From: a virus
IMG/VR virus record: IMGVR_UViG_3300009488_000084
Location: 1-22,207 of that record
Strand: one strand, 5' to 3'
DNA: 22,207 bases
Part shown: one piece after another, positions 830 through 22,207 of the stretch
Layout: every line of letters begins with the position of its first letter
Position numbering within the stretch: the first letter of the stretch is position 1
Program-made: the position numbers and the translations under genes
The notes under the pieces: generated by a model
Seen by the model: the letters and a program-made list of their open reading frames with translations, nothing else
Databases searched by the model: none
Told to the model about the DNA's origin: nothing

Positions 830-830
830 G

Positions 831-1357
831 ATGAAAAACGACTACACCGAAACGCTGCACAGATTGAGACTGCCATTGCCTCCGAGAATGTAACCGCCGA
901 CCTGTTCGACGAGCCGAAATCAAATAGCCCCGAGGACGTCGGATACGTCACAGCGGATCCGCAGCCGAGGAAACGCGAGCCGAAACCGTGGGAACCCGAA
1001 CATCCAAAGCACCCGAGCCAGCGCCCGAACAATGCGCTCGAGCCGGGCGAAACAGCGCCGACCAGGTGGAACGTGGCCGAGCATAGCCTGTCGATTCTCG
1101 ATATGCGCAAGCTGTTGAGCTGGTGCGAGGAAAAAGGAATTGACCCGCACGGCGAAACTGTCGGCAGCCTCTACGTGAGTCTCAACGCGCACAGCCTGGA
1201 CGGTATGCGCTGGCTGTGCACGAACCTCCAACGCTGTGGCCTCGATCGCTTGCCCTCGGTCGGAGTGATCGACAGGGCAATCAAGAAACGCGACCCGGCT
1301 TTGTTATACTCGCTGCCGGACGAACCGAAACCGCCGACCAGGAGGCCGAGAACATGA
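831..1357 (+). CDS. hypothetical protein, frameshifted near its start
   Basis: ATG 831 follows a purine-rich stretch (AGGGG at 821-825) but its frame stops after 20 codons. A second frame is open from 830 to TGA 1355-1357 and reads as convincing protein well before its first plausible start, GTG 1073 (TAIASENVTADLFDEP, then a Pro/Lys/Glu-rich linker). Adding one base to the A run near 850-852 joins the two into 175 residues beginning MKNDYTENAAQIETAIAS. The C-terminal half (WNVAEHSLSILDMRKLLSW onward) looks folded; the end is Pro/Arg-rich. No family recognised. If there is no error, translation would start at GTG 1073, with 94 residues. The stop overlaps the next start (ATGA). Confidence 0.6.
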
Positions 1358-1644
1358 AAACTGTAAACGCGCACACGCACCGAATCAGACACCGCCGCCG
1401 GTTCGCCGTCGCTCATCCGAATTTTTCAGCCAGGCACCGCAAACGGCTCGCGCACCTCACGCAAGTGGCGGGCGAAATGAACGCGATTGTCGGTGTCGCT
1501 GGCGTCACAACCGAGGAGTGCCTGACCAGCATCCGGGACAACGTGACAATCAACCCGGCGGGCGTCCGGGATATTCGCGCCCGAGACCAGCGAGGCACGA
1601 CGCTGGTGGCCGAGGTCGAGGCGTTAGGCATTCCGATTGCCTGA
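1354..1644 (+). CDS. hypothetical small basic protein
   Basis: 96 residues from ATG 1354, preceded by a full AGGAGG at 1340-1345 with eight bases of spacing. The frame stays open further upstream, but this ribosome site and the ATGA overlap with the gene before decide the start. The first 35 residues are strongly basic (HRIRHRRRF, then RHRKRL), which would suit nucleic-acid binding. The remainder is neutral to acidic and includes VAGVTTEECLTSIRDNV. No known family is recognised, so function is open. A canonical terminator follows 25 bases after the stop. Confidence 0.75.
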   Translation: MKTVNAHTHRIRHRRRFAVAHPNFSARHRKRLAHLTQVAGEMNAIVGVAGVTTEECLTSIRDNVTINPAGVRDIRARDQRGTTLVAEVEALGIPIA

Positions 1645-1669
1645 ACCTGGCACGCTATTTGCCGAGAAG

Positions 1670-1693
1670 CCGGGCCTTGTGCCCGGTTTTTTT
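1670..1693 (+). terminator. intrinsic (rho-independent) terminator
   Basis: CCGGGC (1670-1675) pairs perfectly with GCCCGG (1681-1686) around a five-base loop, followed at once by seven T (1687-1693). It closes the plus-strand unit ending at 1644 and isolates the next gene, which therefore needs its own promoter. Confidence 0.92.
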
Positions 1694-1704
1694 GCGCCCA
1701 TTAC

Positions 1705-1733
1705 TTGCCATATGTCGCACCACGCGCGACAAT
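1705..1733 (+). promoter_or_regulatory. sigma70-type promoter candidate
   Basis: TTGCCA at 1705-1710 matches five of six bases of the -35 consensus. After an ideal 17-base spacer comes GACAAT at 1728-1733, matching four of six of the -10 consensus. It sits between the terminator and the next gene. The expected start of transcription, about seven bases after the -10 box, falls at or next to ATG 1741. Confidence 0.55.
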
Positions 1734-1740
1734 TCGAGGC

Positions 1741-2073
1741 ATGACCACTTGGCGCACACTCCGAACCGTGATCGAGTCCGCAGAAATCAGGATTGACCTG
1801 CTCGAATCCGGCCCGCTAACCGCAGGCTGGATCGTTCGCCGTGCCTGCAACGTGTACCAAGTTTTCCGCCCGCCCGTGGCTCGTCCCGAGTCCGGCGTGG
1901 TGGACCTGCTCGCCGATGGCGTCCTAATCGGCTGCTACGGCCAACCAGGTGACGCACAGCGCGCGCTCCTCGACGACGTGGGCCTCGATGCCCCGGACCT
2001 GATTGAGTCCGACAACGTCGTGTACCTGAACTTTCCGCGCACGTACTCCGCCCGGCCCGGTGTCTCGACATAG
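1741..2073 (+). CDS. hypothetical protein, possibly leaderless
   Basis: 110 residues from ATG 1741. The frame extends to TTG 1705, but that codon lies within the promoter candidate, so ATG 1741 is preferred. GAGG at 1736-1739 is only one base away, too close for a normal ribosome site. With a transcription start predicted near 1740, the mRNA may be leaderless. The protein mixes beta-like stretches (GWIVRRACNVYQVFRPPV, GVVDLLADGVLIGCYG) with an acidic helix (AQRALLDDVGLDAPDLIESD). I recognise no family. Being alone between a terminator and the convergent operon, it may be a regulator or accessory gene. Confidence 0.72.
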   Translation: MTTWRTLRTVIESAEIRIDLLESGPLTAGWIVRRACNVYQVFRPPVARPESGVVDLLADGVLIGCYGQPGDAQRALLDDVGLDAPDLIESDNVVYLNFPRTYSARPGVST

Positions 2074-2245
2074 CCCGCCACGGATCACGCTGTCCGCTCG
2101 GGACCGGCGGCTCCTGCATTTCGTCCTCGCGCTGATTTCGTTCGGCTTCGCAGGCTACGACATGGCCGTTGGCGCGTGGGCGTGGGCCGCTGGCTCGTTT
2201 GTCGTCGGTTGCGTGATGCTGATGCGGGCACCGCCCGCCGGTTAG
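2060..2245 (+). CDS. small two-helix membrane protein
   Basis: 61 residues from GTG 2060, overlapping the gene before by 14 bases. A basic N-terminus (RITLSARDRR) is followed by two hydrophobic segments at about 18-35 and 36-55, separated by a short turn, and a Pro-rich tail. This is a membrane hairpin with the N-terminus probably cytoplasmic by the positive-inside rule. Small proteins of this shape include holins and phage superinfection or accessory membrane proteins. With no endolysin or spanin gene beside it, a holin role is only a possibility. No good ribosome site is seen, and coupling to the upstream gene is likely. Its TAG stop overlaps the convergent stop of the tail hub gene. Confidence 0.65.
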   Translation: MSRHSPPRITLSARDRRLLHFVLALISFGFAGYDMAVGAWAWAAGSFVVGCVMLMRAPPAG

Positions 2246-2256
2246 ACGTTCGGCGG
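2224..2256. other. inverted repeats around the convergent stop codons
   Basis: GCGGGC (2224-2229) pairs with GCCCGC (2233-2238) around three bases. CCGCCG (2235-2240) pairs with CGGCGG (2251-2256) around ten bases. The two hairpins share bases and cannot form together. The ten-base loop holds TTAG (2242-2245), which supplies TAG on the plus strand and TAA on the minus strand. It is placed like a bidirectional terminator but has no T tract on either side. Confidence 0.45.
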
Positions 2257-5200
2257 CGTCGGGTTCGGGTACGCGGCCACCTCGGGCGTGAAGCTGGACC
2301 CGCCGTACTCGGCGCTTTTCGTGATCCTGAACTCGTCCCAAAAGCTGTCGCTGTCGCCGTTGAAGCCGGTGACGTCCTGCTGACCCACGCGAATCGTGGC
2401 CGTGCTGTTGAAAATGACGTCCGCGCCGATCGAGGCCGAGGCACCGTCGAGCGTTTGCAGGACGCCGTCCACGAAAATCGACAGCGTGGACCCTTGCCGC
2501 TCGACCGCGACGTGTACCCAAGTGTCGGTCGGGAACAGCGTGTCGAACGCCACGGAGCTCACGAACGCGCGCCGCTCGTCGGCCGCTGTGCCGAGGGTCG
2601 TCCACACAAATTCCAGCTCGTCGGTGGCGTTGTTGAACGCCAGCCGCCAGCTGCGCTGGTCACCGGACTCCGCCCAATGATTGAAAAACGCAACGCCGCC
2701 GTTGTTCTGGCCCGCCTCGTTGTCGTCCGCGTAGTACCAAATGTCAATCGTGAAATCGGAGTCGGCCAGGTCCCACCAGAATAGCGATTGCGTGAAGTTG
2801 AACGCGTCGCCGTCGTCCATTTCGCCGTGCGTCACGCCGAACTTCGGATTGGCGTCGAGGTATCGGGCGCCGCCCTCGAACGTGATTCGCGTGGACCGTC
2901 GGCCGTCGTCGGTTTCCTGCGCCCGGTCGGTGGCGAAAAAGTCCGCGCCGTCGAAGTGGTGCAACAACAGCAAATTGCGGTCGCCCTGGTCGCCTGGTTC
3001 CGGCGGTGCTGCCGGCACCGTGTACGTGCTGCCGTTGTAAAACGTCGTGCCGATGCGAACGCGCACGGCGTCGATGAAACCGTTCAGCGCCCGGATGCGC
3101 GTGACGCTGCTGACGTCGTAGAAGCGGCCGATTGATACCGGCACGTTGGTCTGATTCAGCACGGCGTCGCCTGCGAAGTGATCCACCGCTTGCGCGACGC
3201 GGTTGCCGTCGAAATACAATTCGAGGTCCTGCCCGCGACGCTGCGCCGCCGCGTGATACCACTGGCCGGTGTTCAGCACGCCGAGGTCGCTCGACGTGAG
3301 GTTGTTCTGGCTGCTGATATTTCCCGTGGGCGAGTAGCCCCAAACGAGGTCGTCGTTCGTGTCGAAGTAAAAATACCAGTCGATATTGTTGCCGCTCGGG
3401 CGGTTGTACTTGGCGATAATCGCCATGCCGTCGGCGTTCGTGTTCGGCAACGCGACGAACCGGACCCACGCCTCCATTACGAAATCAGACTTGCGCAAAT
3501 TCCATTGCGGCAGCGCCTCGGGCGGGTTCAGTGTCTCGGGCAGCCATACGCCGTCGGCCAGGGCGGGCGTGAGATTGTTCACGCCGTCGCAGCGCAGCGA
3601 GGACGTGCCGAACTGAAACTGCGCGGTGTCAATTTCCGACGTGGCGCCGAACGTGAGGTCCCACCGATTTGTGTCGTCGGTGCGGTGAGCTGTCGCGGTG
3701 TCCACGTCCTCCATGTTCGATACCAGGGCGTCGAACTTTCCGGCCGGGCCAGGCTCGGGGCGGTCCTCGACCGTGTACGACGTGTCGTTCGGATCAATGG
3801 CCGCGAAGTTGCGCAGCGCCACCTCGTCGATTTGACCCGTAAACGGTAGCGCGTAAACGCCGCCGCCGTCGTAGCGTCCGCCGAGCACGAAATCGACACC
3901 GGCGTCGCTGTGGCTTTGCGACGTGAACGTGGTGCCGGTGCGCGTGCCGTCGATGTAGCACGAAAACCTCGGGGAGCTCGGGTCCTTTTTCTGAACAACG
4001 CGCAGCGCGTACCACTGTGCAGCGTTCGGAGCGAACGCGCCGAGCGCGATGTTCGTGAACGGGCCGTCCGCGCCATTGCGCGAGAACCGCAGCTGAAAGT
4101 TCGCGCCGTCCCATTCGAGATACCACTGGCGGCGACCGGACAGCCATTCCTGTCCGATCAAAACTTGCGCGCTGACAATGTCGTCGAACCGCACGCGCAT
4201 ATCGAGTGTCCACTCAATGTCGTACCAGTCGAAGCCGGGCGCAGATGCGATGTGCACGAAATCGCCGACGCCGTCGAATATCACCGAGCCTCCGCCGTGC
4301 GTGCTCGACGCCGTGTCGATCTCGGCGTTGCCGATAAACAGCGTCGGCCTGGCCAGCTCGTCGAGGCCGTCCACGTCGGTGTCGTCGCCGTTGAACTGGT
4401 GCCCGAGCGATACCTGTTCGGGTTCCAACGAGAAAATGCCGGTGGCAATGAAAAACAGGTCGAACGTGTCGTGGCTCACCTGCAGCTGCGTTTGCGCGAC
4501 CGGGTCCGCCCGCATTTCCACTTCCAGCTTCGCGTTGAACGACAAGCCGGTCACGCCGCCCGCGATCAGCGCCGATTTGGCCATGTCGAACCTGTCACCG
4601 GCCGTTGCCTGGACGACGTAGCCGGCAGACTCCGCCACCGCGAGCAGGCGGTCCGCTGTCGGGTCGGCGTCCAAATCGTGCAGCCACCATGCGAGCTGGT
4701 GATTGTCGGCGACCACGTCGTCGGGATTGAAGCCGGTCTGCGACAGGTCGAGACCCTGAATGCTGCCGAGTATCGACTGGTTGCGCCAGTCGCGCAGCGC
4801 AGGCAAACCGGCCGCGCCGGTGAACGCCGGGCTGGTGTGCACGGTGTCGAAGTCAATCTCGTCGGTGGACTGCGGCAGGACGGTGCTGTTCACCGTGATC
4901 GTGTACGGCAGCAGCGGTTTCGAGGTGCGCACGCCCGCGTTCTCGTCGAGCAGGACCTCGGGCAACGACGTGGCCGCCGGTTCGAGCAACGCATCGGTCG
5001 GCGATCGAGGCAAAAACTTCATGTCGACACCGTCGCCGACGTTGTACACCTCGTCGCCCATGCCCATTCCGCCTGTCCAGATAAACCACACCTGCTCGCC
5101 TGCGGTGTGCGGTTTCATCGGCGTGTCCATGCAGCCGCGCCACACGTCCTCCAAGCGAATCCCGCCGAGGTCGTCCACGATTGTTTGCGCGACGATGAAC

Positions 5201-7095
5201 TCCTCGCCTGGCAGGCCCGGACTGATAACGCAAATCCCGGCAGCGTTGCCGGTGCCGCCGCCGCCTGTCGTTGGCGAGTACGTGTCGATAAGGGCGTCGA
5301 GACTGGCCGCGCCTATCGGGTCCACCTGAATCGAGAACCCGCCGTTGCCGGTCGTCCAGCCGATCTCGTTGTTGCGCAACGTGCCGACCTGGCAGAAGCC
5401 GCCCGAGACAAAATCGGTCGACGTGTAGCCGCCAGCGAACGCCGCGGGCGGGTTCCTGGTCCGCCGGATCACCTCGTACTCGGTCGGACTGTTGCCGAGA
5501 TTGCGACGCGCCAGCGTGGTGATGCGCGGTGCCGGGTTCGGGTTCGGATTGAACCGGGCGAGAATAAACGGGCACTCGAACGCCGCCTGATCGAGCACGC
5601 CGAACGCAATGACGACCTGAATCGGTGGCACGAAATCGGTCGGAGGCGGCACCGTCACGATGGCCGTTTCCTCGTCGAACACGTCGCTGACGACCTCGAA
5701 CTCCATTGTGTTGCGCTCGACGCTGCCCACTCCGGCTTTCGTCACGCGCGTCGCCAGATTGGTCTCGTTGATTTTCTCGGACGTGAGCGAAATTATCGAA
5801 CCTGGCCGGAGCTGGTACGCGGTGCGGTCCAGTTCAATCGTGCCGCTGGCAATCGGCTGCGCGTTCTGCCGCCTGGTACGAGCTGCGACCTTGCTGGCCA
5901 CGTCGGCGGTGTGCACGCCCTGAAATCGGAGTTCCTTTGTTTTCGTGCGTCCGCCCTGAATGATCAGGTTGCCGGGCGCGAGCTCCACGGCGTGTGTTTC
6001 GTTCCATTGTTTCGCGCGGTCGGTGTAGCGAACGCGGACCCGGTTGAACGTCTGCGACCAGTCGCCCTTGCTCCACTTTTTTATTTCCTGAATGTTGACG
6101 GCGCTGGCCTGGAACTCGTTGGCGAGGATGTAATCTTGCCGCGCCAGCGTCACCTCAATGCGGCCCGTGACCGGGTTCGGTCCGATGTAGCCGTCAACGT
6201 GTTGCTCGATTGTGTCCTGAATCTCGCCGGTTGTTGTCTGCTCGTCGATCACTTGCGAGAACCCGATACCCTCCGTGAAGCACGTCGCGTGCGCCGCGTC
6301 GAACGACGGCTTGTCAATATCGGACGGCGGGAAACCTCGGCCCCATCGCTGATTGACGTACAGGTCGTACGCGACCGCAATCGGGTTTGCGTCCTCGCCG
6401 ATGAAATGCTCGTCGTTCAACAGGTTCAGCGTGTCACCGAGGCCACCGTTGGCGGTCGTGTCGAACGCCTGCACGGACACGCGCAGGTAGCGCAGCTGGT
6501 TCGCCTCGCCGATGTTCGCGCCCACGGATTCGGTGAGGTCCGTGACCATAATGTAAGCCGTGCCGCGATACGCGGGCAGCGGGTCGATGCGCGTGTTCAG
6601 GAACGCGGACACGCCCTGCGTTTCAGTACCAGGGAACAGGCGCAGGCGGCCGATAAATCCGCCACCGTTATCGACACCGCCGAACAGGTCGTCGCGGTCA
6701 ATATCGACGACCGTTTGCGGAATCCCTGCGGCGTCGGCTATGTAATCGAACACCTGGTCGTCGCCGATCCACACTCCGGTGATGCCAGCGAGCGGCGTTT
6801 TGCACAGCGCATACTGAAAGGCCAGCTCGTACGTGAAGCCAATCACCTCGTCCTTTTTGAACACGACGCCGGTTTCGACCGTGCGCTCGATCGCCGCGAA
6901 GTCGCCGTACCAAACGCAGTTCGGGGCCTCGATGCGCATGGACCCGCCCGGAATAATCGGCACGACCCGGCCCTCGGTTGCCGTCGGGATGTTGAAGTCG
7001 CCGAGACCGCTGGCGGTTTGCGCCGGCAGGCGCTCGCGGAAATAGTCCGACAGCAAAAACGATACGACCCAAATTATCAGCTGTTGCCAGATCAC
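2242..7095 (-). CDS. central tail hub fused to three LamG-like domains
   Basis: 1617 residues, the last gene of the operon. The first 20 residues are hydrophobic (LIIWVVSFLLSDYF). Residues ~40-500 read as a phage tail hub of the type found in lambda gpJ and the gene-transfer-agent megaprotein, including an ITGVWIGDDQVFDYIADAAG stretch and a beta-barrel segment at ~345-490 (FNRVRVRYTDR; GTIELDRTAYQLRPG). Residues ~500-890 are less clear. Three LamG/concanavalin-like jelly-roll domains follow: ~900-1105 (WTLDMRVRF 962-970, TGQIDEVAL 1086-1094), ~1122-1350 (FVMEAWVRF 1205-1213, GFIDAVRVR 1339-1347) and ~1374-1610 (FTIDIWYYA 1448-1456, FWDEFRITK 1585-1593). These folds usually bind glycans, so the C-terminus is the likely receptor-binding part. 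Its ATG overlaps the upstream stop (ATGA). Confidence 0.88.
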   Translation of the reverse strand: MIWQQLIIWVVSFLLSDYFRERLPAQTASGLGDFNIPTATEGRVVPIIPGGSMRIEAPNCVWYGDFAAIERTVETGVVFKKDEVIGFTYELAFQYALCKTPLAGITGVWIGDDQVFDYIADAAGIPQTVVDIDRDDLFGGVDNGGGFIGRLRLFPGTETQGVSAFLNTRIDPLPAYRGTAYIMVTDLTESVGANIGEANQLRYLRVSVQAFDTTANGGLGDTLNLLNDEHFIGEDANPIAVAYDLYVNQRWGRGFPPSDIDKPSFDAAHATCFTEGIGFSQVIDEQTTTGEIQDTIEQHVDGYIGPNPVTGRIEVTLARQDYILANEFQASAVNIQEIKKWSKGDWSQTFNRVRVRYTDRAKQWNETHAVELAPGNLIIQGGRTKTKELRFQGVHTADVASKVAARTRRQNAQPIASGTIELDRTAYQLRPGSIISLTSEKINETNLATRVTKAGVGSVERNTMEFEVVSDVFDEETAIVTVPPPTDFVPPIQVVIAFGVLDQAAFECPFILARFNPNPNPAPRITTLARRNLGNSPTEYEVIRRTRNPPAAFAGGYTSTDFVSGGFCQVGTLRNNEIGWTTGNGGFSIQVDPIGAASLDALIDTYSPTTGGGGTGNAAGICVISPGLPGEEFIVAQTIVDDLGGIRLEDVWRGCMDTPMKPHTAGEQVWFIWTGGMGMGDEVYNVGDGVDMKFLPRSPTDALLEPAATSLPEVLLDENAGVRTSKPLLPYTITVNSTVLPQSTDEIDFDTVHTSPAFTGAAGLPALRDWRNQSILGSIQGLDLSQTGFNPDDVVADNHQLAWWLHDLDADPTADRLLAVAESAGYVVQATAGDRFDMAKSALIAGGVTGLSFNAKLEVEMRADPVAQTQLQVSHDTFDLFFIATGIFSLEPEQVSLGHQFNGDDTDVDGLDELARPTLFIGNAEIDTASSTHGGGSVIFDGVGDFVHIASAPGFDWYDIEWTLDMRVRFDDIVSAQVLIGQEWLSGRRQWYLEWDGANFQLRFSRNGADGPFTNIALGAFAPNAAQWYALRVVQKKDPSSPRFSCYIDGTRTGTTFTSQSHSDAGVDFVLGGRYDGGGVYALPFTGQIDEVALRNFAAIDPNDTSYTVEDRPEPGPAGKFDALVSNMEDVDTATAHRTDDTNRWDLTFGATSEIDTAQFQFGTSSLRCDGVNNLTPALADGVWLPETLNPPEALPQWNLRKSDFVMEAWVRFVALPNTNADGMAIIAKYNRPSGNNIDWYFYFDTNDDLVWGYSPTGNISSQNNLTSSDLGVLNTGQWYHAAAQRRGQDLELYFDGNRVAQAVDHFAGDAVLNQTNVPVSIGRFYDVSSVTRIRALNGFIDAVRVRIGTTFYNGSTYTVPAAPPEPGDQGDRNLLLLHHFDGADFFATDRAQETDDGRRSTRITFEGGARYLDANPKFGVTHGEMDDGDAFNFTQSLFWWDLADSDFTIDIWYYADDNEAGQNNGGVAFFNHWAESGDQRSWRLAFNNATDELEFVWTTLGTAADERRAFVSSVAFDTLFPTDTWVHVAVERQGSTLSIFVDGVLQTLDGASASIGADVIFNSTATIRVGQQDVTGFNGDSDSFWDEFRITKSAEYGGSSFTPEVAAYPNPTPPNV

Positions 7096-8009
7096 GGCTG
7101 GACCCCTGCAAATTGCGACGTCGAGGTGCGCGTGCCTGGCGGCAGTTCCGTGTTCGCCGGGTCAATCTCCGGGATGTACGGGTAGCCTTGAAAATTTATA
7201 GCGTTGTTGAATTTTTTGTGGCAGGTGGCGATTGACAAGTCGCAGCCAGCGAACACGTTCGCGCCCTCGCCGACAATGAAATCCCGAAACGGCAGGATGA
7301 TTCGCACCGTGTCCGGGTCGCCGCTGATGTTGCCCTCGACAATGTCGCGCACCTCACCGGCGCCGGTCTGGATATATCCGCCGCTCCAATAGATGTCGAG
7401 CTCCGCCGACGATAACGGCCCGGTCGGTCCGCCCTGCACGCCGTCGATTGTTTCGGCTTCCAGTCGCAGGCCGTTGAAAGTTAGCTCGAGTCCCGAGGCG
7501 TCCACGGCGTTGAGCGTGGCAATAAATCGGAAGTCGGTGCGCGTGAGCAGGCAGCCAGGCGACTGGAAAAGGAACGCGTTGCACAGCCCCGAGAACGTAT
7601 CCGGCGGCGTGATTTCCTGCCCGCTGGTGAGCGGTTGTAGGAGCAGCTGCGCCTCGTCCTCCTGGTGATTGATCGAGGCCAGCGTGCCTTTCCAAATCAC
7701 CACGATTTCGTTGCCGGGGTCGTCGAGGTGGAACCGCTCGATTGTCACCGTTGTCGTGAACGACGTGAACACGCCCGAGTAAAGCGCGACCAGCTCGAAC
7801 ACGTTCGGCACCTGCATGGTGATGTTGTTGTCGTCGCTGTCCTTTGACTGCGAAAACTGGCTGCGGCTGTACGCCAACGGGATGAAATCGTTCGCGCCCA
7901 CGGTGACGGTTTTCACCGAGTTCGTGCGCCGGAAAACGTCGTTGCCGTTGGCGAAAGTCAGGAGCTCGACCGGCGAGCCGTCGGTGGTTTCAAACGCGTC
8001 GAATGTCAT
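7092..8009 (-). CDS. tail hub protein, DUF2163/BR0599 (gpL-like) family
   Basis: 305 residues, usual for the family. The C-terminal signature (GCDLSIATCHKKFNNAINFQ, then YPYIPEIDP) is typical of Phage_BR0599, found next to DUF2163 in tail hubs related to lambda gpL and the gene-transfer-agent hub. There are exactly four cysteines, at 143, 153, 256 and 263. Lambda gpL and the GTA hub carry an iron-sulfur cluster, so these four are the probable ligands. The N-terminal half (residues ~10-130) is beta-rich and should form the ring joining tail tube and tip. ATGA overlaps on both sides couple it to its neighbours. No NlpC/P60 peptidase gene follows it, unlike many relatives. Confidence 0.85.
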   Translation of the reverse strand: MTFDAFETTDGSPVELLTFANGNDVFRRTNSVKTVTVGANDFIPLAYSRSQFSQSKDSDDNNITMQVPNVFELVALYSGVFTSFTTTVTIERFHLDDPGNEIVVIWKGTLASINHQEDEAQLLLQPLTSGQEITPPDTFSGLCNAFLFQSPGCLLTRTDFRFIATLNAVDASGLELTFNGLRLEAETIDGVQGGPTGPLSSAELDIYWSGGYIQTGAGEVRDIVEGNISGDPDTVRIILPFRDFIVGEGANVFAGCDLSIATCHKKFNNAINFQGYPYIPEIDPANTELPPGTRTSTSQFAGVQP

Positions 8010-9697
8010 ATTTCAATCACTCCGCGAACGCTGAAACGCAGGTCCGCCGTGCCGAGGTAGAGGTGCTGGAACGTCGCGCTGTCGCCGACCATGCGGACCA
8101 GGGACAGCCACTCCACTTTGACCTCGTCCACCGGGACGGTGCCGCCGCCTGGTATCACTGAGTCGAGCGTGAGCGTTTCAAACGTGACGTTATCGGCCGC
8201 GAGTGTAACCCGCCGGTCGTAGGAAACGCCCGCCACGGTGACGCGAACGTCGCGCCGTGGTGCCACGTTGCCGAGCAGGACGGTCACGCCCATTGGCTGT
8301 ATGTCGATTGTGTTTCCGCCGAGCGACAAATCGTTGAACAGCGGCAGGTCGTTGGTGCCGGTCGGCACGTAGAACCGGCCAAAGGATCCGCGCTGCGCGT
8401 GCAGGAACTCACGCCACGCGTGTGTCTCCGCAAAGTCGTTCAGGTGGACGAGCATTTCCTGTGTCGGCCGACCGATCACTTCGGACCGGGCGTTGAAAAT
8501 GGTGCCCGTGCGACCGTCGAGGCGGCTCGCCTGGCTGACAATCGCGGCGCTGCGAGCCTGGCCCGCGAAAAACAGCGGCTGCTTCGGTATCGGCAGGCCG
8601 TCCACTGGATGCGCGTCGAAATAGGTCGGGTCCACCGTGGCGGCGAGGTTGTCGTACTCGATCAGGTCGAACGTGACGCGGAAATCCTCGGCCTCCGTGG
8701 CGAACGTGGCAAGCTGTTGATTATTCTGCATATATCCGAAGCGAATCGGCATGACGAACGTGTCGGCGGTGAGGTTCACGCCCACGGCTGCGGTGAGCGT
8801 AATGTCGGAGGCCGTAAACGACAGCACCTCGACGGTGAACGCGGTCCGATCAGGCAGGACAATCGACAGCGTGTCGGCGGCTGCGATTTCCATTCCGGTA
8901 GTGTCGATCTGCAGCACGGTGTCCACCGACGCGGCGGCGCTGGTGAGCTGGCGAGCCTGGAACCATAGCTGGACGCCTTGCAGGAGGAAACCGGCGCCGA
9001 GGATTTGGTTGTACAGGATCGTGCGTTCCTTGTTGTCGGTGAATCTCACGTGGTATTGCACGCGGCTGCGCGGCGTCGTGCGCCAGCTCATCACCTGCTC
9101 GCTGCCGTCGTGCGATTGCATCACGTCGCTGCCGAACGTGACCTGCTCGCGTATCGGTCGTTGCGGGATGATCTCGAACAGGATCACGCGGCGGCCGATC
9201 ATCCGTATTGTGAACTCGCCCTCGTCGTGCGTGAACGTGACCAGGGCGTCGAAACTCGGGTCGCCGAATATGTCGGCCTCGAACGTGAACACGATGCTGC
9301 CAAAGGACGGCACGGCAATCGGCAGGCCGGGCGTTATCAGCGTGACGCCGGACACCTGCGACACGTCCACGGCCGTGATGTTGACCGGGAACCGGAACGT
9401 GTTGTGCGCGGTGACGATGGCCTGCTTGGTCGCCGTGATGTTGCCGAAATCTACCGGGTTCGGTGTGCCGCCGAGGCCGTCGAGATAAAACTGCGCGAAC
9501 CCGTTGGCGACGCCGGGCGCGGCTGCGTTGATGTCGAGTACGACCTGCGGGAACTGTTGCTGAACGATTGCCGCGCCGGTCGTCCACAAATCCTCCAGCC
9601 CATCCTTGTCGGCGTTCGGGTCCGGCAGCGTCGGCAATTCGGGATTGCCAGGCGCGTGGAAAATCCGCTGAAAAACACCTGCAGCGCCTTGTGCCAT
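8006..9697 (-). CDS. distal tail-like protein with an Ig/ASH-like domain
   Basis: 563 residues. The segment AWREFLHAQRGSFGRFYVPT at 427-446, followed by NDLPL, matches the pattern in distal tail proteins and DUF2460-type proteins, where an aromatic helix precedes a beta sheet. Position right before the hub gene agrees. Residues ~80-172 (VDFGNITATKQA, then SFGSIVFTFEADIFGD and FTIRMIGRRV) resemble the ASH/HYDIN-like Ig fold, an extra domain that may decorate the tail tip. The rest is beta-rich with no clear motif. ATG 9697 lies three bases past the upstream stop; its ribosome site is poor, so coupling is likely. Distal tail role: probable, not certain. Confidence 0.72.
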   Translation of the reverse strand: MAQGAAGVFQRIFHAPGNPELPTLPDPNADKDGLEDLWTTGAAIVQQQFPQVVLDINAAAPGVANGFAQFYLDGLGGTPNPVDFGNITATKQAIVTAHNTFRFPVNITAVDVSQVSGVTLITPGLPIAVPSFGSIVFTFEADIFGDPSFDALVTFTHDEGEFTIRMIGRRVILFEIIPQRPIREQVTFGSDVMQSHDGSEQVMSWRTTPRSRVQYHVRFTDNKERTILYNQILGAGFLLQGVQLWFQARQLTSAAASVDTVLQIDTTGMEIAAADTLSIVLPDRTAFTVEVLSFTASDITLTAAVGVNLTADTFVMPIRFGYMQNNQQLATFATEAEDFRVTFDLIEYDNLAATVDPTYFDAHPVDGLPIPKQPLFFAGQARSAAIVSQASRLDGRTGTIFNARSEVIGRPTQEMLVHLNDFAETHAWREFLHAQRGSFGRFYVPTGTNDLPLFNDLSLGGNTIDIQPMGVTVLLGNVAPRRDVRVTVAGVSYDRRVTLAADNVTFETLTLDSVIPGGGTVPVDEVKVEWLSLVRMVGDSATFQHLYLGTADLRFSVRGVIEI

Positions 9698-9700
9698 TGC

Positions 9701-11182
9701 CTACACCACCGGACCTGTTTCGACGCGGTACGCCAGCCCCTCGTATCCGCTGTACGGTTCGCCGTCCACGGTGTTGACCGCGTCGTCGTTGCACATCGGG
9801 AATACTTTGTAGTCCACGCCCTGCACGGTGATTGTCTCCTCGGGCGCGTAGTCGCGCATATTGATGCGGAAAATGTCCGGGACCTGGGCGACGATTCCGA
9901 GCCGAATGTCGGACTGGAAATCGAACATCGCGCCGACGTAAATCGGGACGAGTACGTTCGCGTTGGCCGTGAAGTTTCGGTCGCACGCCCAAAGCAACGA
10001 GCCGAGGCCGGCGTCGTAAAAATTGGTCTGCGCGGTGCCGATTCGGCTGCGCAACATCACGCCTCCGGTGCTCGTCGTGACACCGCCGTCGCCTGATTTT
10101 TGCGCCGGGCTGCCGAGGCATTGCAGGCCGTCGTGCGGCTGCGCCTGGAAAAAGTGGTAACCCTCGAACGTCAGGTCGAACGTGGCGTCGATGCCTGCGC
10201 CTGTCGTGCTCGCTTGCGGGACCGCCAGCACCGGGTTCGTGTCACCGTCGCCGGTGGCCTCGTCGTACGGCCCGGCGGTCAGTATCGACACGGCCGTAAT
10301 GACGCCCGCCGATTCGGCGTCCACGTTCAGCACCGCCGCGGTGCCGACGCCTGCGCGTACACCGTCGGACAGGTCCACCGTGATTTGGTCGTTTACCGCG
10401 TGACCCGTGCCGCCAGCGTTCACGGCCGCAGCCGACACCTGAATCGGGAACAGGCCCGGCATATAGAACAGGACGCCCGGTGCCGTGTTCAGCATGGCGA
10501 TACCGAACGCGCCGTTAAAGCTGGTGCCGGTCCGGTTGCGGAACGGCGGGTTGTGATTCGCGTACGGGTGGTGCTCCTCGTCCGCGACAGGTGCGGTCGG
10601 CCAGGCGGAGCCGTCCTCGACCGACGACCAGAAATGCGCGGTCTGATAAAACGACGTCGGGTCCAAGTCCACGCCGCCGTCGATTTGCCGCAGCCGTCCA
10701 ATGTGAAAATGCCGATAGTGGCGGGCGCTGATTTTGAGCACGCAATGGATATATTCGCCGGTCGTGTCGGAGAACAGCCAGTACCCCTCGTAAGGCCCGG
10801 TCATGTTGTTCGTGAGCATCATTCTGGTGCCCGCGCCGATCGAGGCGGCGCCGCTACCGTACGCCGGGAACGTGTCGTTAATCGGAGCGTTGGCCGGGTT
10901 GTTCGGCTGGTCGAAAATTTCCTCGGTCAGGTCGATGTCGCTTCCGTTGAATCCGTACAGGTGGTTCGCTTCGGTTTTGAAAAACGCGAACGGACTCACG
11001 GGCGACGGCACGGTGCCCCGGTGTGTCCACAGTTCGATGTCCGGCCGGATGCCGGGTGCCGGTGCCTGGTTATCGACCCACAGGCAATCGTCACGGGCAA
11101 ACGGCAGCCAAATATCGAGCATGAAGTCGCCCATGTCGTCATCGCCGGGTTCAAAGGCCCCGACTACAAATTCGTGCGGCAT
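9701..11182 (-). CDS. virion structural protein with GGTG beta module
   Basis: 493 residues from ATG 11182, which overlaps the upstream stop as TAATG and has GGAG at 11191-11194, eight bases away. An in-frame start eight codons earlier is less good. Residues ~250-340 hold a module beginning GGTGHAVNDQITVDLSDG (257-274) and continuing with GVITAVSILTAG. This repeat is common in phage fibres and tail-tip proteins. Around it are a His/Tyr-rich strip (ARHYRHFHIGRLRQ) and a C-terminal part ending in DYKVFP and GYEGLAYRVE. The next protein upstream has a similar module and a similar ending, so the pair may be paralogues. Probable tail-tip or tail-surface protein. Confidence 0.75.
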   Translation of the reverse strand: MPHEFVVGAFEPGDDDMGDFMLDIWLPFARDDCLWVDNQAPAPGIRPDIELWTHRGTVPSPVSPFAFFKTEANHLYGFNGSDIDLTEEIFDQPNNPANAPINDTFPAYGSGAASIGAGTRMMLTNNMTGPYEGYWLFSDTTGEYIHCVLKISARHYRHFHIGRLRQIDGGVDLDPTSFYQTAHFWSSVEDGSAWPTAPVADEEHHPYANHNPPFRNRTGTSFNGAFGIAMLNTAPGVLFYMPGLFPIQVSAAAVNAGGTGHAVNDQITVDLSDGVRAGVGTAAVLNVDAESAGVITAVSILTAGPYDEATGDGDTNPVLAVPQASTTGAGIDATFDLTFEGYHFFQAQPHDGLQCLGSPAQKSGDGGVTTSTGGVMLRSRIGTAQTNFYDAGLGSLLWACDRNFTANANVLVPIYVGAMFDFQSDIRLGIVAQVPDIFRINMRDYAPEETITVQGVDYKVFPMCNDDAVNTVDGEPYSGYEGLAYRVETGPVV

Positions 11183-12516
11183 TATAAAATCTCCATTGCG
11201 ACCCACTGGCCCGTGTCGGCGCCGTTGGTATCAGGGAAAACGATGTAGCGCGACGCGCTCAAGAAACTTTCGATCTCCTCGAACGCGGTCAGGCCGATGC
11301 CGTGCACGTTCTCAAAGCCGTCGATATATCCGATAACCTGCGTGTCGCCTGGCTGGCTGCTGACAATGTGCGACGTGACAACGAGCGACATTTGCGCGCC
11401 GGTGCCGAACGGACTAACGCCCGGCACGCCGTCGGCGGAGCCTAACGGATTCTCGAACCAGCCACCGGACGAACCGTTGCCGCTCGCGTCACCGAGCACG
11501 ACGTCCTGAAAGCCGGAATACTGCGTGGACTGGCCGGACACCTGCGGCGCCAGCGTGATGTTGTAATCGCCACGGAACGTGCGGTGCGGCCACATTTTCG
11601 AGCGGGCCAGGCCGACGCCCGCCTGCTGCGCAATCGTGAGCCATTGCGCTGACAGGTTGTCGCGGTAGCGCACGGCCGGGAACACCGTCGTGAACGTGCC
11701 CGGATTGCACACGCCGCAGTTATTCCCGCCGTTGCCGTCGTTGTTGTACGCCTGCGCCATTGGCTGAATGACCGTGCTTTGCGCGTGGACGATACCAGGG
11801 AACGGATAATTCGCGTCGATGCTGGTAAGCGGAATGAACAGGCCGAGGCCGCCGTACTGCACGTTGTTGCCGTCGCGGGCGACCACGTTGGCGCGGCGCT
11901 CGGTCGTCGATAGGAATATCTCCGGGTTCTGCGCCGGGATATTCAGGATCATGCCAGCCACCGGGCTGGTGTCCGGTTGCGTCGTGAACGTCTGCCCGTT
12001 GTCGAAACCGCTGGCCACCATGAGCCTGTTCGAGTCGTTGCCGCTGCCGGTCACGGTGTCCATGCCGATTGTGGCCGGGTTCAGCGTTTTCGTGCTGGTC
12101 GCTATCCACTCAAAGTCGGTCTGGTCGTCCACGTACGTGCTGCGGTCCTGCGTCCAAGTTGACAGTTCGGTCGTCAGATCGACGGTGAGGTCGTCGTTGC
12201 CTGCGGCGCTGGCGTTCGTTGTGGCTGCGCCAGTGACGCCAGGCAGCGTGCTGTAGGCTCCGGCGCTGAGATACTTCACGCCCGTTACAACGCCGCCCGA
12301 TTCAGCTGTCACGACGCCGGTGGCTACGAACGCGCCAATTGGAGTGCCGCCGACAATGTCGAATGTTTCGCCGACCACGTACCCGGTGCCGCCTACATTC
12401 ACGGCCAGGTCGATAACGTGATCGTTCAGAATCATATCGAGCACGGCTTTGGCGAACACAATCCGGCCGAGGCTGGTCGTTCCGTTCGCTACGAGTGTTT
12501 CGTGTAAAAATGGCAC
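11182..12516 (-). CDS. virion structural protein with GGTG beta module
   Basis: 444 residues from GTG 12516, with AGGAG in the end of the tape measure gene eight bases away. The N-terminus is a helix (GRIVFAKAVLDMILNDHVID), followed by a module at ~40-95 starting GGTGYVVGETFDIVGG (42-57) and running to GGVVTGVKYLSAGAY. The remainder is beta-rich with Gly/Asn-rich loops, a CGVC pair, and an ending ASRYIVFPDTNGADTGQWVA. It lies directly after the tape measure and is probably a tail-tip or tail-surface component. It shares its module and C-terminal pattern with the next gene, which suggests an old duplication. Exact role unknown. Confidence 0.75.
   Translation of the reverse strand: MPFLHETLVANGTTSLGRIVFAKAVLDMILNDHVIDLAVNVGGTGYVVGETFDIVGGTPIGAFVATGVVTAESGGVVTGVKYLSAGAYSTLPGVTGAATTNASAAGNDDLTVDLTTELSTWTQDRSTYVDDQTDFEWIATSTKTLNPATIGMDTVTGSGNDSNRLMVASGFDNGQTFTTQPDTSPVAGMILNIPAQNPEIFLSTTERRANVVARDGNNVQYGGLGLFIPLTSIDANYPFPGIVHAQSTVIQPMAQAYNNDGNGGNNCGVCNPGTFTTVFPAVRYRDNLSAQWLTIAQQAGVGLARSKMWPHRTFRGDYNITLAPQVSGQSTQYSGFQDVVLGDASGNGSSGGWFENPLGSADGVPGVSPFGTGAQMSLVVTSHIVSSQPGDTQVIGYIDGFENVHGIGLTAFEEIESFLSASRYIVFPDTNGADTGQWVAMEIL
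11191..11194 (-). promoter_or_regulatory. ribosome binding site deciding the 11182 start
   Basis: GGAG in mRNA sense, eight bases before ATG 11182. It lies inside the last codons of the upstream gene and favours this start over the longer reading from 11206. Confidence 0.8.
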
Positions 12517-12519
12517 GGT

Positions 12520-14622
12520 TCAGACTCCTAATGCTCGGCGAAACGCGACGCGCTTCACGGAAATTCGATTGAGCAACACCGAGTCGCCAGCCCCGCCCTG
12601 AAATGCTCCGGTGATGTCGGACTCGTCAATGGTGTTGACGATTGTGTTGTTGACGACCGGCGCGGCCATAGCCGCTGCGCCTCGGTCGCCGTTTATCGGG
12701 ACGACGTTGCCGCCCTGGTTCGGCACGAAAACCTCCGCACCGAAGCGACCGCCCTCGCCAGTTCGGACCGCCTGGCCCGCCTGTACGCCGCCGCCGAACT
12801 GTCGGCCGCCTGCAATCGCGCCGACAATTCCCGAAATGATACCGCCCGTGCTGGTGCCGCCGCCGCCGCTGGCCGAGCCGAGCAGGCTGTTGAAAATCTC
12901 GGCAGCGAGCGCCTGGCTGGCGAGTGCCAGTATCATTTCCGAGAACGCGCGGCCGAAGTCGTCGAGGTCCTGCAGGCCGGACTCCAAAAAACCGGCCAGT
13001 ATGTCCTGCGAGTTTTCGCGGGCACGTCGGAAAAAATCCTCGAGCGAATCGTCGAGGTTGTCGAGATTTTCCACCGAACGCTCGAATGTCTCCTCGGTGA
13101 TCAGGCCCTTATCGAGCAGCCCCTGCAGGCGTTCGACCTCGTCCGCGTACACCTCGGTCGCGGTGCGAGCTGCCAGCGTCACCTCCTCGGCCGATTTCAG
13201 GTCGTCCTCCAATTCCTTTTGCGCGTCGGCCAGCTCCTCGGCGCGCGTTTTCTGTTCCTGCAACGCGTCGCGGGCGGCCAGGGCCTCGGCTGTGAACTCG
13301 TCGTTCGCACCGGCAGCGCCTAGCGCCTCGATTTTCAGTTCGGCGAGCACGTCCTTGTATTCGCGGCCGGTGTCGTTCGCAATGCGCATGGCTTCGGTTT
13401 GCTGGCGCAGCGATAGAATCAACGCCTCCTGCTGTTTGCGGATCCGCTCTAATTCCTTTGCGGTCTCCGGGTCGATTGCGTCGCCGCCGGTTCCCGGTGT
13501 GCCCGGTGCGTCGAGGTCCACCTCGCGGTCCTCGGCTTCGCGGCGTCGCTCCTCGTTGTTCCGGCGTATCGCCTCGAACTCCGCGTCCAGCTTCGAGCGT
13601 ATCGCGTCGAGTTCGGCCTCGAACTCGTTCTGGCCCTCCAACGCTGCCCGGAACAAATCCTCGTCCCTGGTCAGCGCCGCAATGATTTTGATTATCTCGG
13701 CTTGTATCGCGCCGAACTTCGGGCCGACGGTCTCGACGAAATTGACCACGGCAACCGTGGCCACCTCGACAAACTCGCGGAAGTCGAGCGCCAGGCTGCG
13801 AACGCTGGCCCCGAGCTCCAGCGTTTCCTCGTCGGTGAGCTGGAATATATCGACGAGGCCCTGCGATACGCCCGCCGCCCGGTCGAACTCACCGATGACG
13901 ACAAGCGCGAAATTCTGTGCGGTCGTGAGCGCCTGGCCGAGCGTAGCGTCGATCTGGCCGAACTCGGCCTGCAGGGCCGGGCCAGCTTCCAGCACGATGT
14001 CGAATATGCGGTCGCCGGTCAGCTTGCCCTGCTCGGCAAGGTCGCGCAGCTGTCCGACGTTTACGCCGAAGCCGTCCGCGAGCACGCGGGCCAGTCGCGT
14101 GTTCTGTTCGAGGACCGACCGGAGCTCGTCACCACGGAGCGCGCCGGACGCGAGGCCCTGCGCAAACTGAATCGTGGACGCCGCCGCCTCCTGCGTCGTC
14201 GCACCGGAAATCTGAATGGCCTGGTTGATACTTTCCGTGAATTGCAGCGTTTCCTGCTGGCTGCGTCCTAACTGCTCGGTCGATCGAGCAACACGGGCGT
14301 ACAAGTCGGCGGTCTCGGTGAGGCCCGAGCGCGTGCGCTGCGCGATGCCGATTAGTTCGTCCTGTACGGCGTTGAACTCGGCCGTCGAGTCCGTGACCAG
14401 GCGAATGCGGTTGCCGATCAGCGTGTACGTGTCGGCGTATTGGACTAGCTCGCGGACACCGAGAAACGCGACGAGGTTGCGAAACGCACCGGCCAACGCG
14501 TCGGACGATTGCTTGGTTTCCTTTTGCTCCTCGTCAACGCCCTCCAGCGCACCCTCGACCTGGTTGAGCGATTTCACCGCCCCGCTGGAATCAATGACAA
14601 TCCGTATGACGCGGTCAACCAT
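12520..14622 (-). CDS. tail tape measure protein
   Basis: 700 residues. It runs through the tail lumen and sets tail length during assembly. The N-terminal tape-measure domain (~40-240) has the signature GALRGDELRSVLEQNTRLAR at 160-179 and LAEQGKLTGDRIF. Residues ~320-515 are charged, heptad-like coiled coil (FEAELDAIRSKLDAEFEAIR; AEELADAQKELEDDLKSAEE), broken by a Gly/Pro linker near 370. A hydrophobic Gly-rich segment (~575-615) could insert in the host membrane. The C-terminus has RTGEGGRFGAEVFVPNQGG, common in this family. At about 1.5 angstrom per residue, a tail near 105 nm would be expected. AGGAGGA at 14631-14637 and an eight-base overlap with the chaperone gene fix the start. Confidence 0.95.
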   Translation of the reverse strand: MVDRVIRIVIDSSGAVKSLNQVEGALEGVDEEQKETKQSSDALAGAFRNLVAFLGVRELVQYADTYTLIGNRIRLVTDSTAEFNAVQDELIGIAQRTRSGLTETADLYARVARSTEQLGRSQQETLQFTESINQAIQISGATTQEAAASTIQFAQGLASGALRGDELRSVLEQNTRLARVLADGFGVNVGQLRDLAEQGKLTGDRIFDIVLEAGPALQAEFGQIDATLGQALTTAQNFALVVIGEFDRAAGVSQGLVDIFQLTDEETLELGASVRSLALDFREFVEVATVAVVNFVETVGPKFGAIQAEIIKIIAALTRDEDLFRAALEGQNEFEAELDAIRSKLDAEFEAIRRNNEERRREAEDREVDLDAPGTPGTGGDAIDPETAKELERIRKQQEALILSLRQQTEAMRIANDTGREYKDVLAELKIEALGAAGANDEFTAEALAARDALQEQKTRAEELADAQKELEDDLKSAEEVTLAARTATEVYADEVERLQGLLDKGLITEETFERSVENLDNLDDSLEDFFRRARENSQDILAGFLESGLQDLDDFGRAFSEMILALASQALAAEIFNSLLGSASGGGGTSTGGIISGIVGAIAGGRQFGGGVQAGQAVRTGEGGRFGAEVFVPNQGGNVVPINGDRGAAAMAAPVVNNTIVNTIDESDITGAFQGGAGDSVLLNRISVKRVAFRRALGV

Positions 14623-20650: not shown

Positions 20651-22207
20651 TCATGTCCAAACTGGTATCCAATGCGCCGTGCCGCCGATGTCAATCTCGA
20701 CCCATTGCGCTTGCGCTGCGGCCGTCGGCCCCGAGCCTCCAATGGTGCCGAGTGTAGCAGCGGCTCCGCCGCCGAGTGCGATTCCCCTGTTGATGTCGAG
20801 TCTGCCGTCGAACCGGGCCAGGGCGCTGGCGTTGCTTTGCCGGAACGCGTAGTTCAGCGTGCCGCCGCTCGGGTTCGCTGTAATCAGCAAGCCGTAGCGA
20901 TTCGTGCCGAAACCAGGGCCGGTCTGAATCAACACGTTGCCGGTGTTGACGGCGCTGCCTGTCGATGCGCCGTCGATGAACGGCTCGTTGACAACGTCGG
21001 TGAACGCGTTCGACATTGCCGCGTTGAGCAGGACCGCGCCCGAGGCCGAGAACAACCGCCGCGCGAAATCTCCGCCGACCGTGACTGTTTTTACGCCCGG
21101 CGAGAACAGCGCCTGCCAGTTCGCCGTCGGGTCGGCAAGCGTGGTGCCGAACGACAGCGTCGGGAAATCGAACGTGAGCGAGTCGGCCGCGCTGAAACAC
21201 CGCATGGCGTCCGCTGTTGCCGTGTTCAGGTCCCACGCCATAACGCCGGTCGCGGTCCATTGCATTGTGTCGGCTGCGCTGCGCGCGAGTGCCACGTCGT
21301 TCGCAGTCGCTCCGCCTAGCCGCAGCTCGATAGCGTTCGCCATTGCGAGCGGACCGGAGAACAGCGACGGCGCGCTGCCCGTGTGATTGATGAACGTGCC
21401 GGCCACCATCGCGGAATTGATGCCCCGCAGCGTGGTGATGCCCGCGCCTGGAATGTTCGGAAAGTCGCACAGATTCAGCGTCGTGATAAAGCCGCCAGCC
21501 GTCAGCGTCGGCGCTTTCGGCGCGAAGTAATTCACGGTGGTGATGCCAGCTGTGCCGACCGTTGCGTCAATAATGCAGGTCGCAAAATACGTTTCGTGCG
21601 AGGTGAGCAGGAAATTGCCCGCCAGGTTCGGCCCGATGCGAATTTGTGATCGCACCGCGTTTTGCTGGCTGCCTGTCCTCGATCCGCCGAGCGCGCCCGT
21701 TCGGAACAGCGGCTGGTTGATCATCGTGTATATCGGGCCGGTGTTCGCGCCCTCCAACGTGACCGTCGTTGCCTGATTGAACAGCGATTGCGTGTTGAAC
21801 AGGTTGCCCTGCTCGGTCAGGACCAGCTCGCCTATCCACGACACAAAGTTCGGCGCGGTATCGTTGCCGACGCCGCCGCCGCCTGGTACGAGACTGTTGA
21901 CCGTGCTTGTCCAGTTGCACGCCGGATTCGATCCGGCGTCCGTTCGCGTGCGGCCGTCCGGGTAAAACTCGAAAGCGCCGTAGCCGTCAACAACGTCCTG
22001 CAGGCTCACGAAACGGTCGGTCATTGATTGCCCGAAGTCCACCTGCAGCGGGGCCACGCGGAGGCGAGGCACGCCAGCGCCGTCCTGCACTTCGACCAGC
22101 GTGCCTATCGGCGCCGCATTATCCCGGATCGTGAACGGCTGGCCACCGACCAGGACGATATGCGGCACGCCGCCGGTGCTGTCGTACGTTTGCTGCACGG
22201 TCGGCAC
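20651..22207 (-). CDS. beta-rich appendage (fibre or head-fibre) protein, 5' end uncertain
   Basis: 518 codons visible, ending at TGA 20653-20651. The first in-frame codon at the edge is GTG, but it may be internal. The sequence is Gly/Thr/Asn/Ala-rich and repetitive in beta character (QSLFNQATTVTLEGANTGPI; GGFITTLNLCDFPNIPGAGI), like beta-helical phage fibres. The C-terminus (INRGIALGGGAAATLGTIGG, then AQWVEIDIGGTAHWIPVW) is a cap often seen on phage fibre or head-fibre proteins. Its place, upstream of the connector genes and not by the tail-tip genes, suggests a head- or neck-attached appendage. Alternative: a tail spike moved from its usual place. Confidence 0.72.
   Translation of the reverse strand: MPTVQQTYDSTGGVPHIVLVGGQPFTIRDNAAPIGTLVEVQDGAGVPRLRVAPLQVDFGQSMTDRFVSLQDVVDGYGAFEFYPDGRTRTDAGSNPACNWTSTVNSLVPGGGGVGNDTAPNFVSWIGELVLTEQGNLFNTQSLFNQATTVTLEGANTGPIYTMINQPLFRTGALGGSRTGSQQNAVRSQIRIGPNLAGNFLLTSHETYFATCIIDATVGTAGITTVNYFAPKAPTLTAGGFITTLNLCDFPNIPGAGITTLRGINSAMVAGTFINHTGSAPSLFSGPLAMANAIELRLGGATANDVALARSAADTMQWTATGVMAWDLNTATADAMRCFSAADSLTFDFPTLSFGTTLADPTANWQALFSPGVKTVTVGGDFARRLFSASGAVLLNAAMSNAFTDVVNEPFIDGASTGSAVNTGNVLIQTGPGFGTNRYGLLITANPSGGTLNYAFRQSNASALARFDGRLDINRGIALGGGAAATLGTIGGSGPTAAAQAQWVEIDIGGTAHWIPVWT

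What the first reader, a model, noticed from the sequence alone, without database searches (positions are those of the whole stretch)
2242..7095. Tail hub fused to three consecutive LamG-like domains
Residues ~900-1610 read as three jelly-roll domains, each with a conserved strand pattern and an aromatic-rich core, directly attached to a gpJ-type hub. This suggests a multivalent glycan-binding tip made from one chain, with no separate fibre gene after it in the operon. The three copies differ, so they may bind different sugars.
Basis: partly seen in the sequence, partly recalled or inferred. Interest (0 to 1): 0.6.

Follow-up and report, generated by a model that had tools for sequence, protein, structure and literature searches.

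The report
Swappable lectin array on phage tail
The protein at the tip of this uncultured phage's tail ends in three sugar-binding-type (LamG) domains, and this tail end has been exchanged as a block with relatives, which suggests a replaceable, multi-pronged device for recognising host cells.

Summary
On the minus strand (2242-7095, 1617 aa) a lambda-gpJ / JBD30-gp53-type tail hub (about residues 30-490), followed by an FN3-like region (490-890), ends in three ConA/LamG jelly-rolls: D1 893-1113, D2 1117-1362, D3 1372-1609. Each alone passes Pfam's Laminin_G_3 cut-off, and the predicted fold matches LamG/CBM structures at Z 16-19.

The hub is the last gene of its operon; the genes that follow are convergent. 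In JBD30 a separate receptor-binding protein docks on the hub C-terminus, where the LamG array sits here. However, a homologue of a JBD30 lateral tail-fibre protein lies upstream, so the phage is not fibreless.

Relatives carry 2, 3 or 5 LamG domains. D1, D2 and D3 are old, separate lineages. The array has been swapped: the hub groups with L002/L014, the LamG region with L021/L026 (AU p below 1e-53 each way). The tract runs from residue ~882 to the stop codon; the downstream genes again group with L002/L014.

Most likely this is a covalent, exchangeable lectin-type receptor-binding tip. Glycan binding is inferred. A published phage hub (AXL3) ends in one LamG-like domain, so this is a new variant of a known kind.

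The parts
2242..7095 (-). Tail hub gene, 1617 aa: small N-terminal tail domain + hub core + FN3-like region + three LamG domains
6883..7095 (-). Residues 1-71: segment that is a separate small protein ('tail assembly protein 1') in phage Chi
   Evidence: profile match to 8vjh_U, E 3e-10; phrog_1180
5626..6882 (-). Residues 72-490: hub core (JBD30 gp53 / Chi / T5 pb3 / GTA megatron / lambda gpJ fold)
   Evidence: profile E 9e-88 and 4e-95; structural Z 20-28
4426..5625 (-). Residues 491-890: fibronectin-III-like region before the LamG array
   Evidence: structural alignments to FN3 pairs, Z 8-9
3757..4419 (-). LamG domain D1, residues 893-1113
   Evidence: Pfam 45.6 bits; Z 19.2 to AbnA arabinanase
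3010..3747 (-). LamG domain D2, residues 1117-1362
   Evidence: Pfam 49.9 bits; Z 18.6 to AbnA domain 4 and 16.7 to sialidase CBM40
2269..2982 (-). LamG domain D3, residues 1372-1609
   Evidence: Pfam 39.8 bits; Z 19.0 to the lectin-like (jelly-roll) part of a clostridial receptor-binding fragment, 1diw
2235..4452 (-). Exchanged tract: DNA that aligns with L021/L026 although the hub and both flanks group with L002/L014
7092..8009 (-). Upper baseplate protein (JBD30 gp50 / Chi gp27 / GTA hub, BR0599 family)
8006..9697 (-). Distal tail protein (JBD30 8rk3_U, E 4e-23)
9701..11206 (-). Homologue of a JBD30 tail-fibre-forming protein (8rk3_S); middle part variable among relatives
11182..12516 (-). 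Unidentified 444-aa protein in the position of the second JBD30 tail-fibre protein
   Evidence: conserved in the family; no PDB match of note
12520..14622 (-). Tape measure protein
830..2245 (+). Convergent small genes after the hub (open frames 830-1354, 1645-2070, 2030-2239), conserved in L002/L006/L014

Best explanation
The gene encodes the trimeric tail-tip hub of a siphophage whose C-terminus carries a covalently attached array of three LamG/ConA-like lectin-type domains that serve as the receptor-binding tip. SHOWN (computationally): hub, FN3-like region and 3 LamG folds; array size of 2, 3 or 5 in relatives; exchange of the whole array, and once of a single domain, between relatives at domain borders; no adhesin gene after the hub. 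INFERRED: the hub is a trimer, as in JBD30, R4C and GTA, so a virion presents 3 arms with 9 LamG domains. The arms take the place of the separate receptor-binding protein that docks on the JBD30 hub C-terminus. They bind cell-surface polysaccharide or glycoprotein with avidity, bring the tip to the outer membrane, and displacement of the arms helps open the hub for tape-measure release. Host range shifts by exchanging the array. An upstream JBD30-like lateral fibre may make the first contact.
For: Pfam and structure for three LamG domains. Hub matches JBD30 gp53 (E 9e-88) and Chi (4e-95), with structural Z of 28.2 and 27.1, T5 23.0, GTA 21.9, lambda 20.0. In JBD30 the hub is a trimer and its C-terminus docks into the separate RBP gp54 (PMC11445458); in R4C three megatrons carry separate fibre trimers with a lectin-like foot (PMC10276861). 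Complete close relatives have 2 (L007, L016), 3 (most) or 5 (L024) LamG domains. Some distant hubs without LamG are followed by separate genes: DUF2793 proteins or, in L083, a LamG protein starting at the hub's stop. Window hub closest to L013/L002/L014 (88/79/74%), LamG closest to L021/L026 (57-70% against 33-40% for L002). Hub tree rejects the LamG grouping (p 5e-59) and LamG tree rejects the hub grouping (p 4e-54). Tract borders fall at residue ~882 and the stop codon. L019 D2 is 68% identical to L014 D2 while D1 and D3 are 41 and 36%.
Against: No binding data. No conserved sugar-binding residues could be assigned. LamG domains in other proteins also bind proteins or only hold structure. 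A homologue of a JBD30 lateral-fibre protein upstream may do the primary recognition. Mean pLDDT of the array is only 77.8 and inter-domain packing is uncertain (pTM 0.58). The window is a fragment, so a distant RBP gene cannot be excluded; the 44.8-kb sister contig G001 has no second LamG gene but does encode a 1320-aa repetitive protein of unknown role.
Confidence: 0.68

Rival explanations
1. The LamG array binds a protein receptor (for example type IV pilin or an outer-membrane protein) rather than glycans; it is still a receptor-binding tip.
For: AXL3, whose hub ends in a LamG-like domain, uses the type IV pilus as receptor (PMC7504290), and JBD30 is pilus-dependent. LamG domains such as those of neurexin or laminin, which are among the structural hits, bind proteins (own knowledge).
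Against: The best per-domain structural matches include carbohydrate-binding domains: AbnA domain 4 (solved with an arabino-oligosaccharide), sialidase CBM40, and lectin-like domains. In JBD30 the pilus is bound by lateral fibres, a homologue of which exists here separately.
Confidence: 0.25
2. The LamG domains are accessory adhesion decorations that loosely hold phages to surfaces or extracellular polymers, while specific recognition is done by the lateral fibre encoded upstream or by another protein.
For: Homologue of a JBD30 tail-fibre protein upstream with a variable middle part. LamG domains in other phages were proposed to be accessory (PMC8541153). Variable domain number is tolerated.
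Against: Position at the hub C-terminus where the RBP docks in JBD30, presence in every complete close relative, and exchange of the array as a block are what is expected of the specificity determinant.
Confidence: 0.25
3. The jelly-rolls are polysaccharide-degrading enzymes (ConA-like GH16 or PL7 type).
For: Same superfamily name in Pfam (PF13385) and a sub-threshold match of D3 to 3-keto-disaccharide hydrolase.
Against: No GH16 ExDxxE, PL7 QIH or RxExR motif, and no sialidase Asp-box in the region. The leading structural matches fall on binding domains.
Confidence: 0.05
4. Artefact: the fusion or the exchange is a metagenome assembly chimera.
For: The window and relatives are metagenome contigs; one relative (L008) ends in a 32-base snap-back artefact.
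Against: The fused architecture recurs in many divergent contigs, several of them long. The exchanged tract is only 57-70% identical (protein) to its nearest relatives, so it is not a join of two present-day sequences; L126 carries the same array type on a hub only 61% identical.
Confidence: 0.03

Closest known systems
Stenotrophomonas phage AXL3 gp21, central tail hub (PMC7504290)
   Same: Same order tape measure, two proteins, distal-tail-sized protein, BR0599 protein, hub; the hub ends in a LamG-like domain (874-1024, paper) and is followed by a small gene and an endolysin. Hub 24% identical over 525 residues; AXL3 gp18 matches the family of 9701-11206.
   Different: One weak LamG-like domain, not recognised by Pfam or by the family model here; here three strong ones, 2-5 in the family, with evidence of exchange.
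Phage JBD30 baseplate (gp49, gp50, gp53, gp54, fibres gp47/gp48; PMC11445458)
   Same: Homologous distal tail, upper baseplate, hub and one tail-fibre protein.
   Different: The JBD30 hub has no LamG array; its C-terminus docks a separate trimeric RBP gp54. Here no such gene follows.
Phage Chi minor tail protein (8vjh_A) and tail assembly protein 1 (8vjh_U)
   Same: Best profile match of the hub (4e-95) and of residues 2-71.
   Different: In Chi the N-terminal piece is a separate small protein; here it is fused.
Roseophage R4C / RcGTA megatron (PMC10276861)
   Same: Hub fold (Z 20-22), trimeric, carries carbohydrate-binding elements.
   Different: Separate fibre trimers bound to a fibre-binding domain instead of a fused LamG array.
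Lambda gpJ
   Same: Hub fold (Z 20.0) and receptor binding at the C-terminus of the hub chain itself (own knowledge).
   Different: The lambda receptor-binding end is not a LamG array (own knowledge).
PhiJL001 Gp88 and cyanophage LamG proteins
   Same: Similar multi-LamG arrays (best BFVD match E 9e-34; cyanophage gp7 regions).
   Different: The cyanophage matches lie in baseplate-wedge proteins, not a siphophage hub; the PhiJL001 gene context could not be inspected.

Membership tests
gpJ/gp53-type siphophage tail hub | Sequence or profile homology to solved hubs | tested here: met
   8vjh_A 4e-95, 8rk3_o 9e-88, GTA 4e-6; Phage-tail_3
gpJ/gp53-type siphophage tail hub | Hub fold in structure comparison | tested here: met
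   Z 28.2 JBD30, 27.1 Chi, 23.0 T5, 21.9 GTA, 20.0 lambda
gpJ/gp53-type siphophage tail hub | Gene order tape measure - distal tail protein - upper baseplate - hub | tested here: met
gpJ/gp53-type siphophage tail hub | Trimer at the tail tip | not testable with these tools
   Taken from homologues
LamG / concanavalin A-like lectin fold (PF13385) | Score above curated cut-off for each domain | tested here: met
   45.6, 49.9, 39.8 bits against 27.6
LamG / concanavalin A-like lectin fold (PF13385) | Jelly-roll beta-sandwich | tested here: met
LamG / concanavalin A-like lectin fold (PF13385) | Carbohydrate binding | not testable with these tools
   No ligand data; fold matches to CBMs only
Modular phage receptor-binding protein | C-terminal module exchanged independently of the attachment part | tested here: met
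   Conflicting trees and tract borders
Modular phage receptor-binding protein | Module determines adsorption specificity | not testable with these tools
   No isolate
JBD30-type baseplate with separate gp54 RBP | RBP gene directly after the hub | tested here: not met
   Window and L002 are followed by convergent small genes, L005 by an endolysin-like gene
ConA-like polysaccharide lyase or hydrolase | Catalytic motifs of GH16 or PL7 | tested here: not met
   Motif scan empty

The most novel reading that the evidence does not exclude
A family of uncultured siphophages has replaced the separate receptor-binding tripod of a JBD30-like baseplate by a covalent lectin array on the hub. The array grows and shrinks (2 to 5 domains) and recombines at domain borders, giving combinatorial recognition of several surface glycans from one chain.
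Probability: 0.4. Interest if true: 0.6.

Novelty: new variant of a known kind. Interest (0 to 1): 0.45.

Why it matters
Where host specificity sits in uncultured siphophages is usually a guess. Here sequence alone marks the unit: a block that begins at residue ~882 and ends at the stop codon has moved between otherwise different tails. If the block sets the host, LamG type could be read from metagenomes as a host-range tag, and isolated arrays become ready probes for environmental bacterial surface sugars. It also suggests a route by which a separate receptor-binding protein can be replaced by a fused array: distant relatives have the hub and a LamG protein as neighbouring genes, others a fused single copy, this family 2-5 copies.

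Tried and rejected
(1) Prophage or named host: a scan of 84,980 bacterial and archaeal genomes found only distant hubs (best long matches 29% or less), so no host can be named. (2) A cultured phage with the same hub plus array: none of 50,697 phage records covers 80% of the protein. (3) L008 as a one-LamG variant: rejected, its contig ends in a 32-base snap-back of the same sequence, otherwise identical to L006. (4) L004 as proof of a very recent D2 swap: it is about 99% identical to L002 over 5.8 kb and diverges from residue 1087 on, but the contig ends about 45 codons later and an exact probe finds no other contig; kept as a hint only. (5) Enzymatic jelly-rolls: no catalytic motifs. (6) Recent triplication: rejected, D1s, D2s and D3s cluster by position across phages (3 label changes, minimum 2), with L007 and L024 as exceptions. 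(7) Identity of the 444-aa protein (11182-12516): no convincing PDB, Pfam or PHROG match. (8) PhiJL001 record for gene context: not in the collection. (9) A literature search for a central tail hub with a concanavalin A-like lectin found no paper; the AXL3 precedent came from a LamG host-recognition search.

Full report
WHAT IS THERE. The gene lies on the minus strand at 2242-7095 and encodes 1617 aa. It starts inside the stop of the preceding gene. Pfam finds Phage-tail_3 at 342-444 and three Laminin_G_3 stretches (E 3e-31). Submitted one at a time, the three domains score 45.6, 49.9 and 39.8 bits against a curated cut-off of 27.6. PHROGs calls the first 740 residues a tail protein (phrog_1101, E 1e-114).

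STRUCTURE. An AlphaFold2 model of residues 870-1617, built with 14 relatives, has mean pLDDT 77.8 and three beta-sandwiches. Foldseek's best PDB hits are tandem LamG modules of laminin and neurexin, E 1e-16 to 1e-12. Domain by domain, VIA-align gives Z 19.2 for D1 (AbnA arabinanase), 18.6 and 16.7 for D2 (AbnA domain 4; sialidase CBM40) and 19.0 for D3 (the lectin-like part of a clostridial receptor-binding fragment), which fixes the borders at 893-1113, 1117-1362 and 1372-1609. These matches show a shared fold, not a shared function. A second model, residues 1-900 (pLDDT 81.0), matches the hubs of JBD30 (Z 28.2), Chi (27.1), T5 (23.0), GTA (21.9) and lambda (20.0), and FN3 pairs over about 490-886 (Z 8-9).

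THE BASEPLATE. Upstream genes are homologous to JBD30 parts: 8006-9697 is the distal tail protein (8rk3_U, E 4e-23), 7092-8009 the upper baseplate protein, 9701-11206 a tail-fibre-forming protein (8rk3_S, profile E 4e-9; that 8rk3_S is gp47 or gp48 is inferred from its 12 chains, its length and gene order). The protein at 11182-12516 sits where the second JBD30 fibre protein would be, but has no match of note. The hub's first 71 residues match a separate small protein of phage Chi (8vjh_U, E 3e-10), so the chain is fused at both ends. In JBD30 the hub is a trimer whose C-terminus docks into the separate receptor-binding protein gp54 (PMC11445458). Here the LamG array occupies that place. After the hub the window has small convergent genes conserved in L002, L006 and L014, and L005 has an endolysin-like peptidase, two small genes and a helicase-like gene. 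In sister contig G001 (44.8 kb) the hub is the only LamG gene.

RELATIVES. A scan of IMG/VR for the hub gave 80 loci. All complete hubs with at least 57% core identity carry LamG: two in L007 and L016, three in L002, L005, L006, L014, L017, L021, L026 (also L019, cut at the very end), five in L024. L129, L130 and L131 add three-domain cases. Hubs of 34% identity or less lack recognisable LamG, except L010/L062 and L174 with one. Some of these hubs are followed by a separate adhesin-like gene: DUF2793 proteins in two tested members of the L035-L051 group, and in L083 a LamG protein that begins at the hub's stop codon. This is the separate form of the module that is fused here. The comparison is not exhaustive.

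HISTORY OF THE ARRAY. A tree of 43 LamG domains groups D1s, D2s and D3s by position across phages (3 label changes where 2 is the minimum and shuffles average 18.8). The triplication is therefore older than most of the family, and the three copies have evolved apart (25-29% identity within the window protein).

EXCHANGE. Window hub core: 88, 79 and 74% identical to L013, L002 and L014, but only 65 and 63% to L021 and L026. Window D1/D2/D3: 70/66/57% to L021 and 65/57/66% to L026, but 33/40/37% to L002. The hub tree rejects grouping the window with L021/L026/L023 (p 5e-59) and the LamG tree rejects grouping it with L002/L014/L015 (p 4e-54). At DNA level similarity to L021/L026 resumes at residue 882 and stops at the stop codon, while similarity to L002 ends at residue 888; beyond the stop, the convergent genes are again closest to L002/L014/L006 (44-58% against about 30%). 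The neighbouring baseplate genes agree with the hub. The simplest reading is replacement of exactly the LamG block. The clades were named after seeing identities, so the p values are not those of a blind test, but log-likelihood differences of 267-318 leave little doubt. L019 shows exchange of a single domain: its D2 is 68% identical to that of L014, its D1 and D3 41 and 36%.

HOW IT PROBABLY WORKS. Three hub chains present three arms with nine LamG domains around the tip. A lateral fibre may make the first contact; the arms then bind surface polysaccharide or glycoprotein with avidity, and their displacement opens the hub for tape-measure release, as proposed for the JBD30 tripod. Steps shown here by computation: folds, positions, variable number, exchange. 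Steps inferred: trimer, ligand, opening.

NOVELTY. A hub with one LamG-like domain at its C-terminus is published for phage AXL3, a type IV pilus phage with the same gene order (PMC7504290); that domain is too weak for Pfam or the family model. LamG domains were proposed as receptor-binding or accessory domains in other phages. New here: strong tandem arrays of 2-5 domains on a JBD30-like hub, and clear evidence that the array moves as a block. I rate it a new variant of a known kind.

Noticed in passing
window 6883-7095 (-): The hub's first ~71 residues are a separate small 'tail assembly protein 1' in phage Chi and are fused to the hub in this family; many distant relatives match only from residue ~80 on.
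   Followed up: partly
window 20651-22207 (-), runs to the contig end: 518-aa protein ending in AQWVEIDIGGTAHWIPVWT, a fibre-like C-terminus; no match in phage records, Pfam, PHROGs or sister genomes, so probably a variable virion protein.
   Followed up: partly
L123 4235-8197 (-), contig G001: 1320-aa protein made largely of repeats like GALAGSAALVITPTG, upstream of the tail tube gene in the sister genome, at a similar place to the window's 518-aa protein; no family match.
   Followed up: partly
L010 1728-5345 and 11933-15256; L078 4547-7048 and 7055-10753: Two hub-like proteins in one phage genome, in L078 as direct neighbours.
   Followed up: no
window 9701-11206 (-): The fibre-like protein is conserved at both ends but its middle part is poorly conserved or absent in many relatives: another candidate host-range region.
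   Followed up: partly
L002 against L004: About 99% identical DNA over 5.8 kb, with differences clustered in the distal tail gene and from hub residue 1087 (end of D1) to the contig end: possible very recent array change.
   Followed up: partly
L008 6856-6887: 32-base inverted snap-back at the contig end, an assembly artefact that mimics a short hub.
   Followed up: yes
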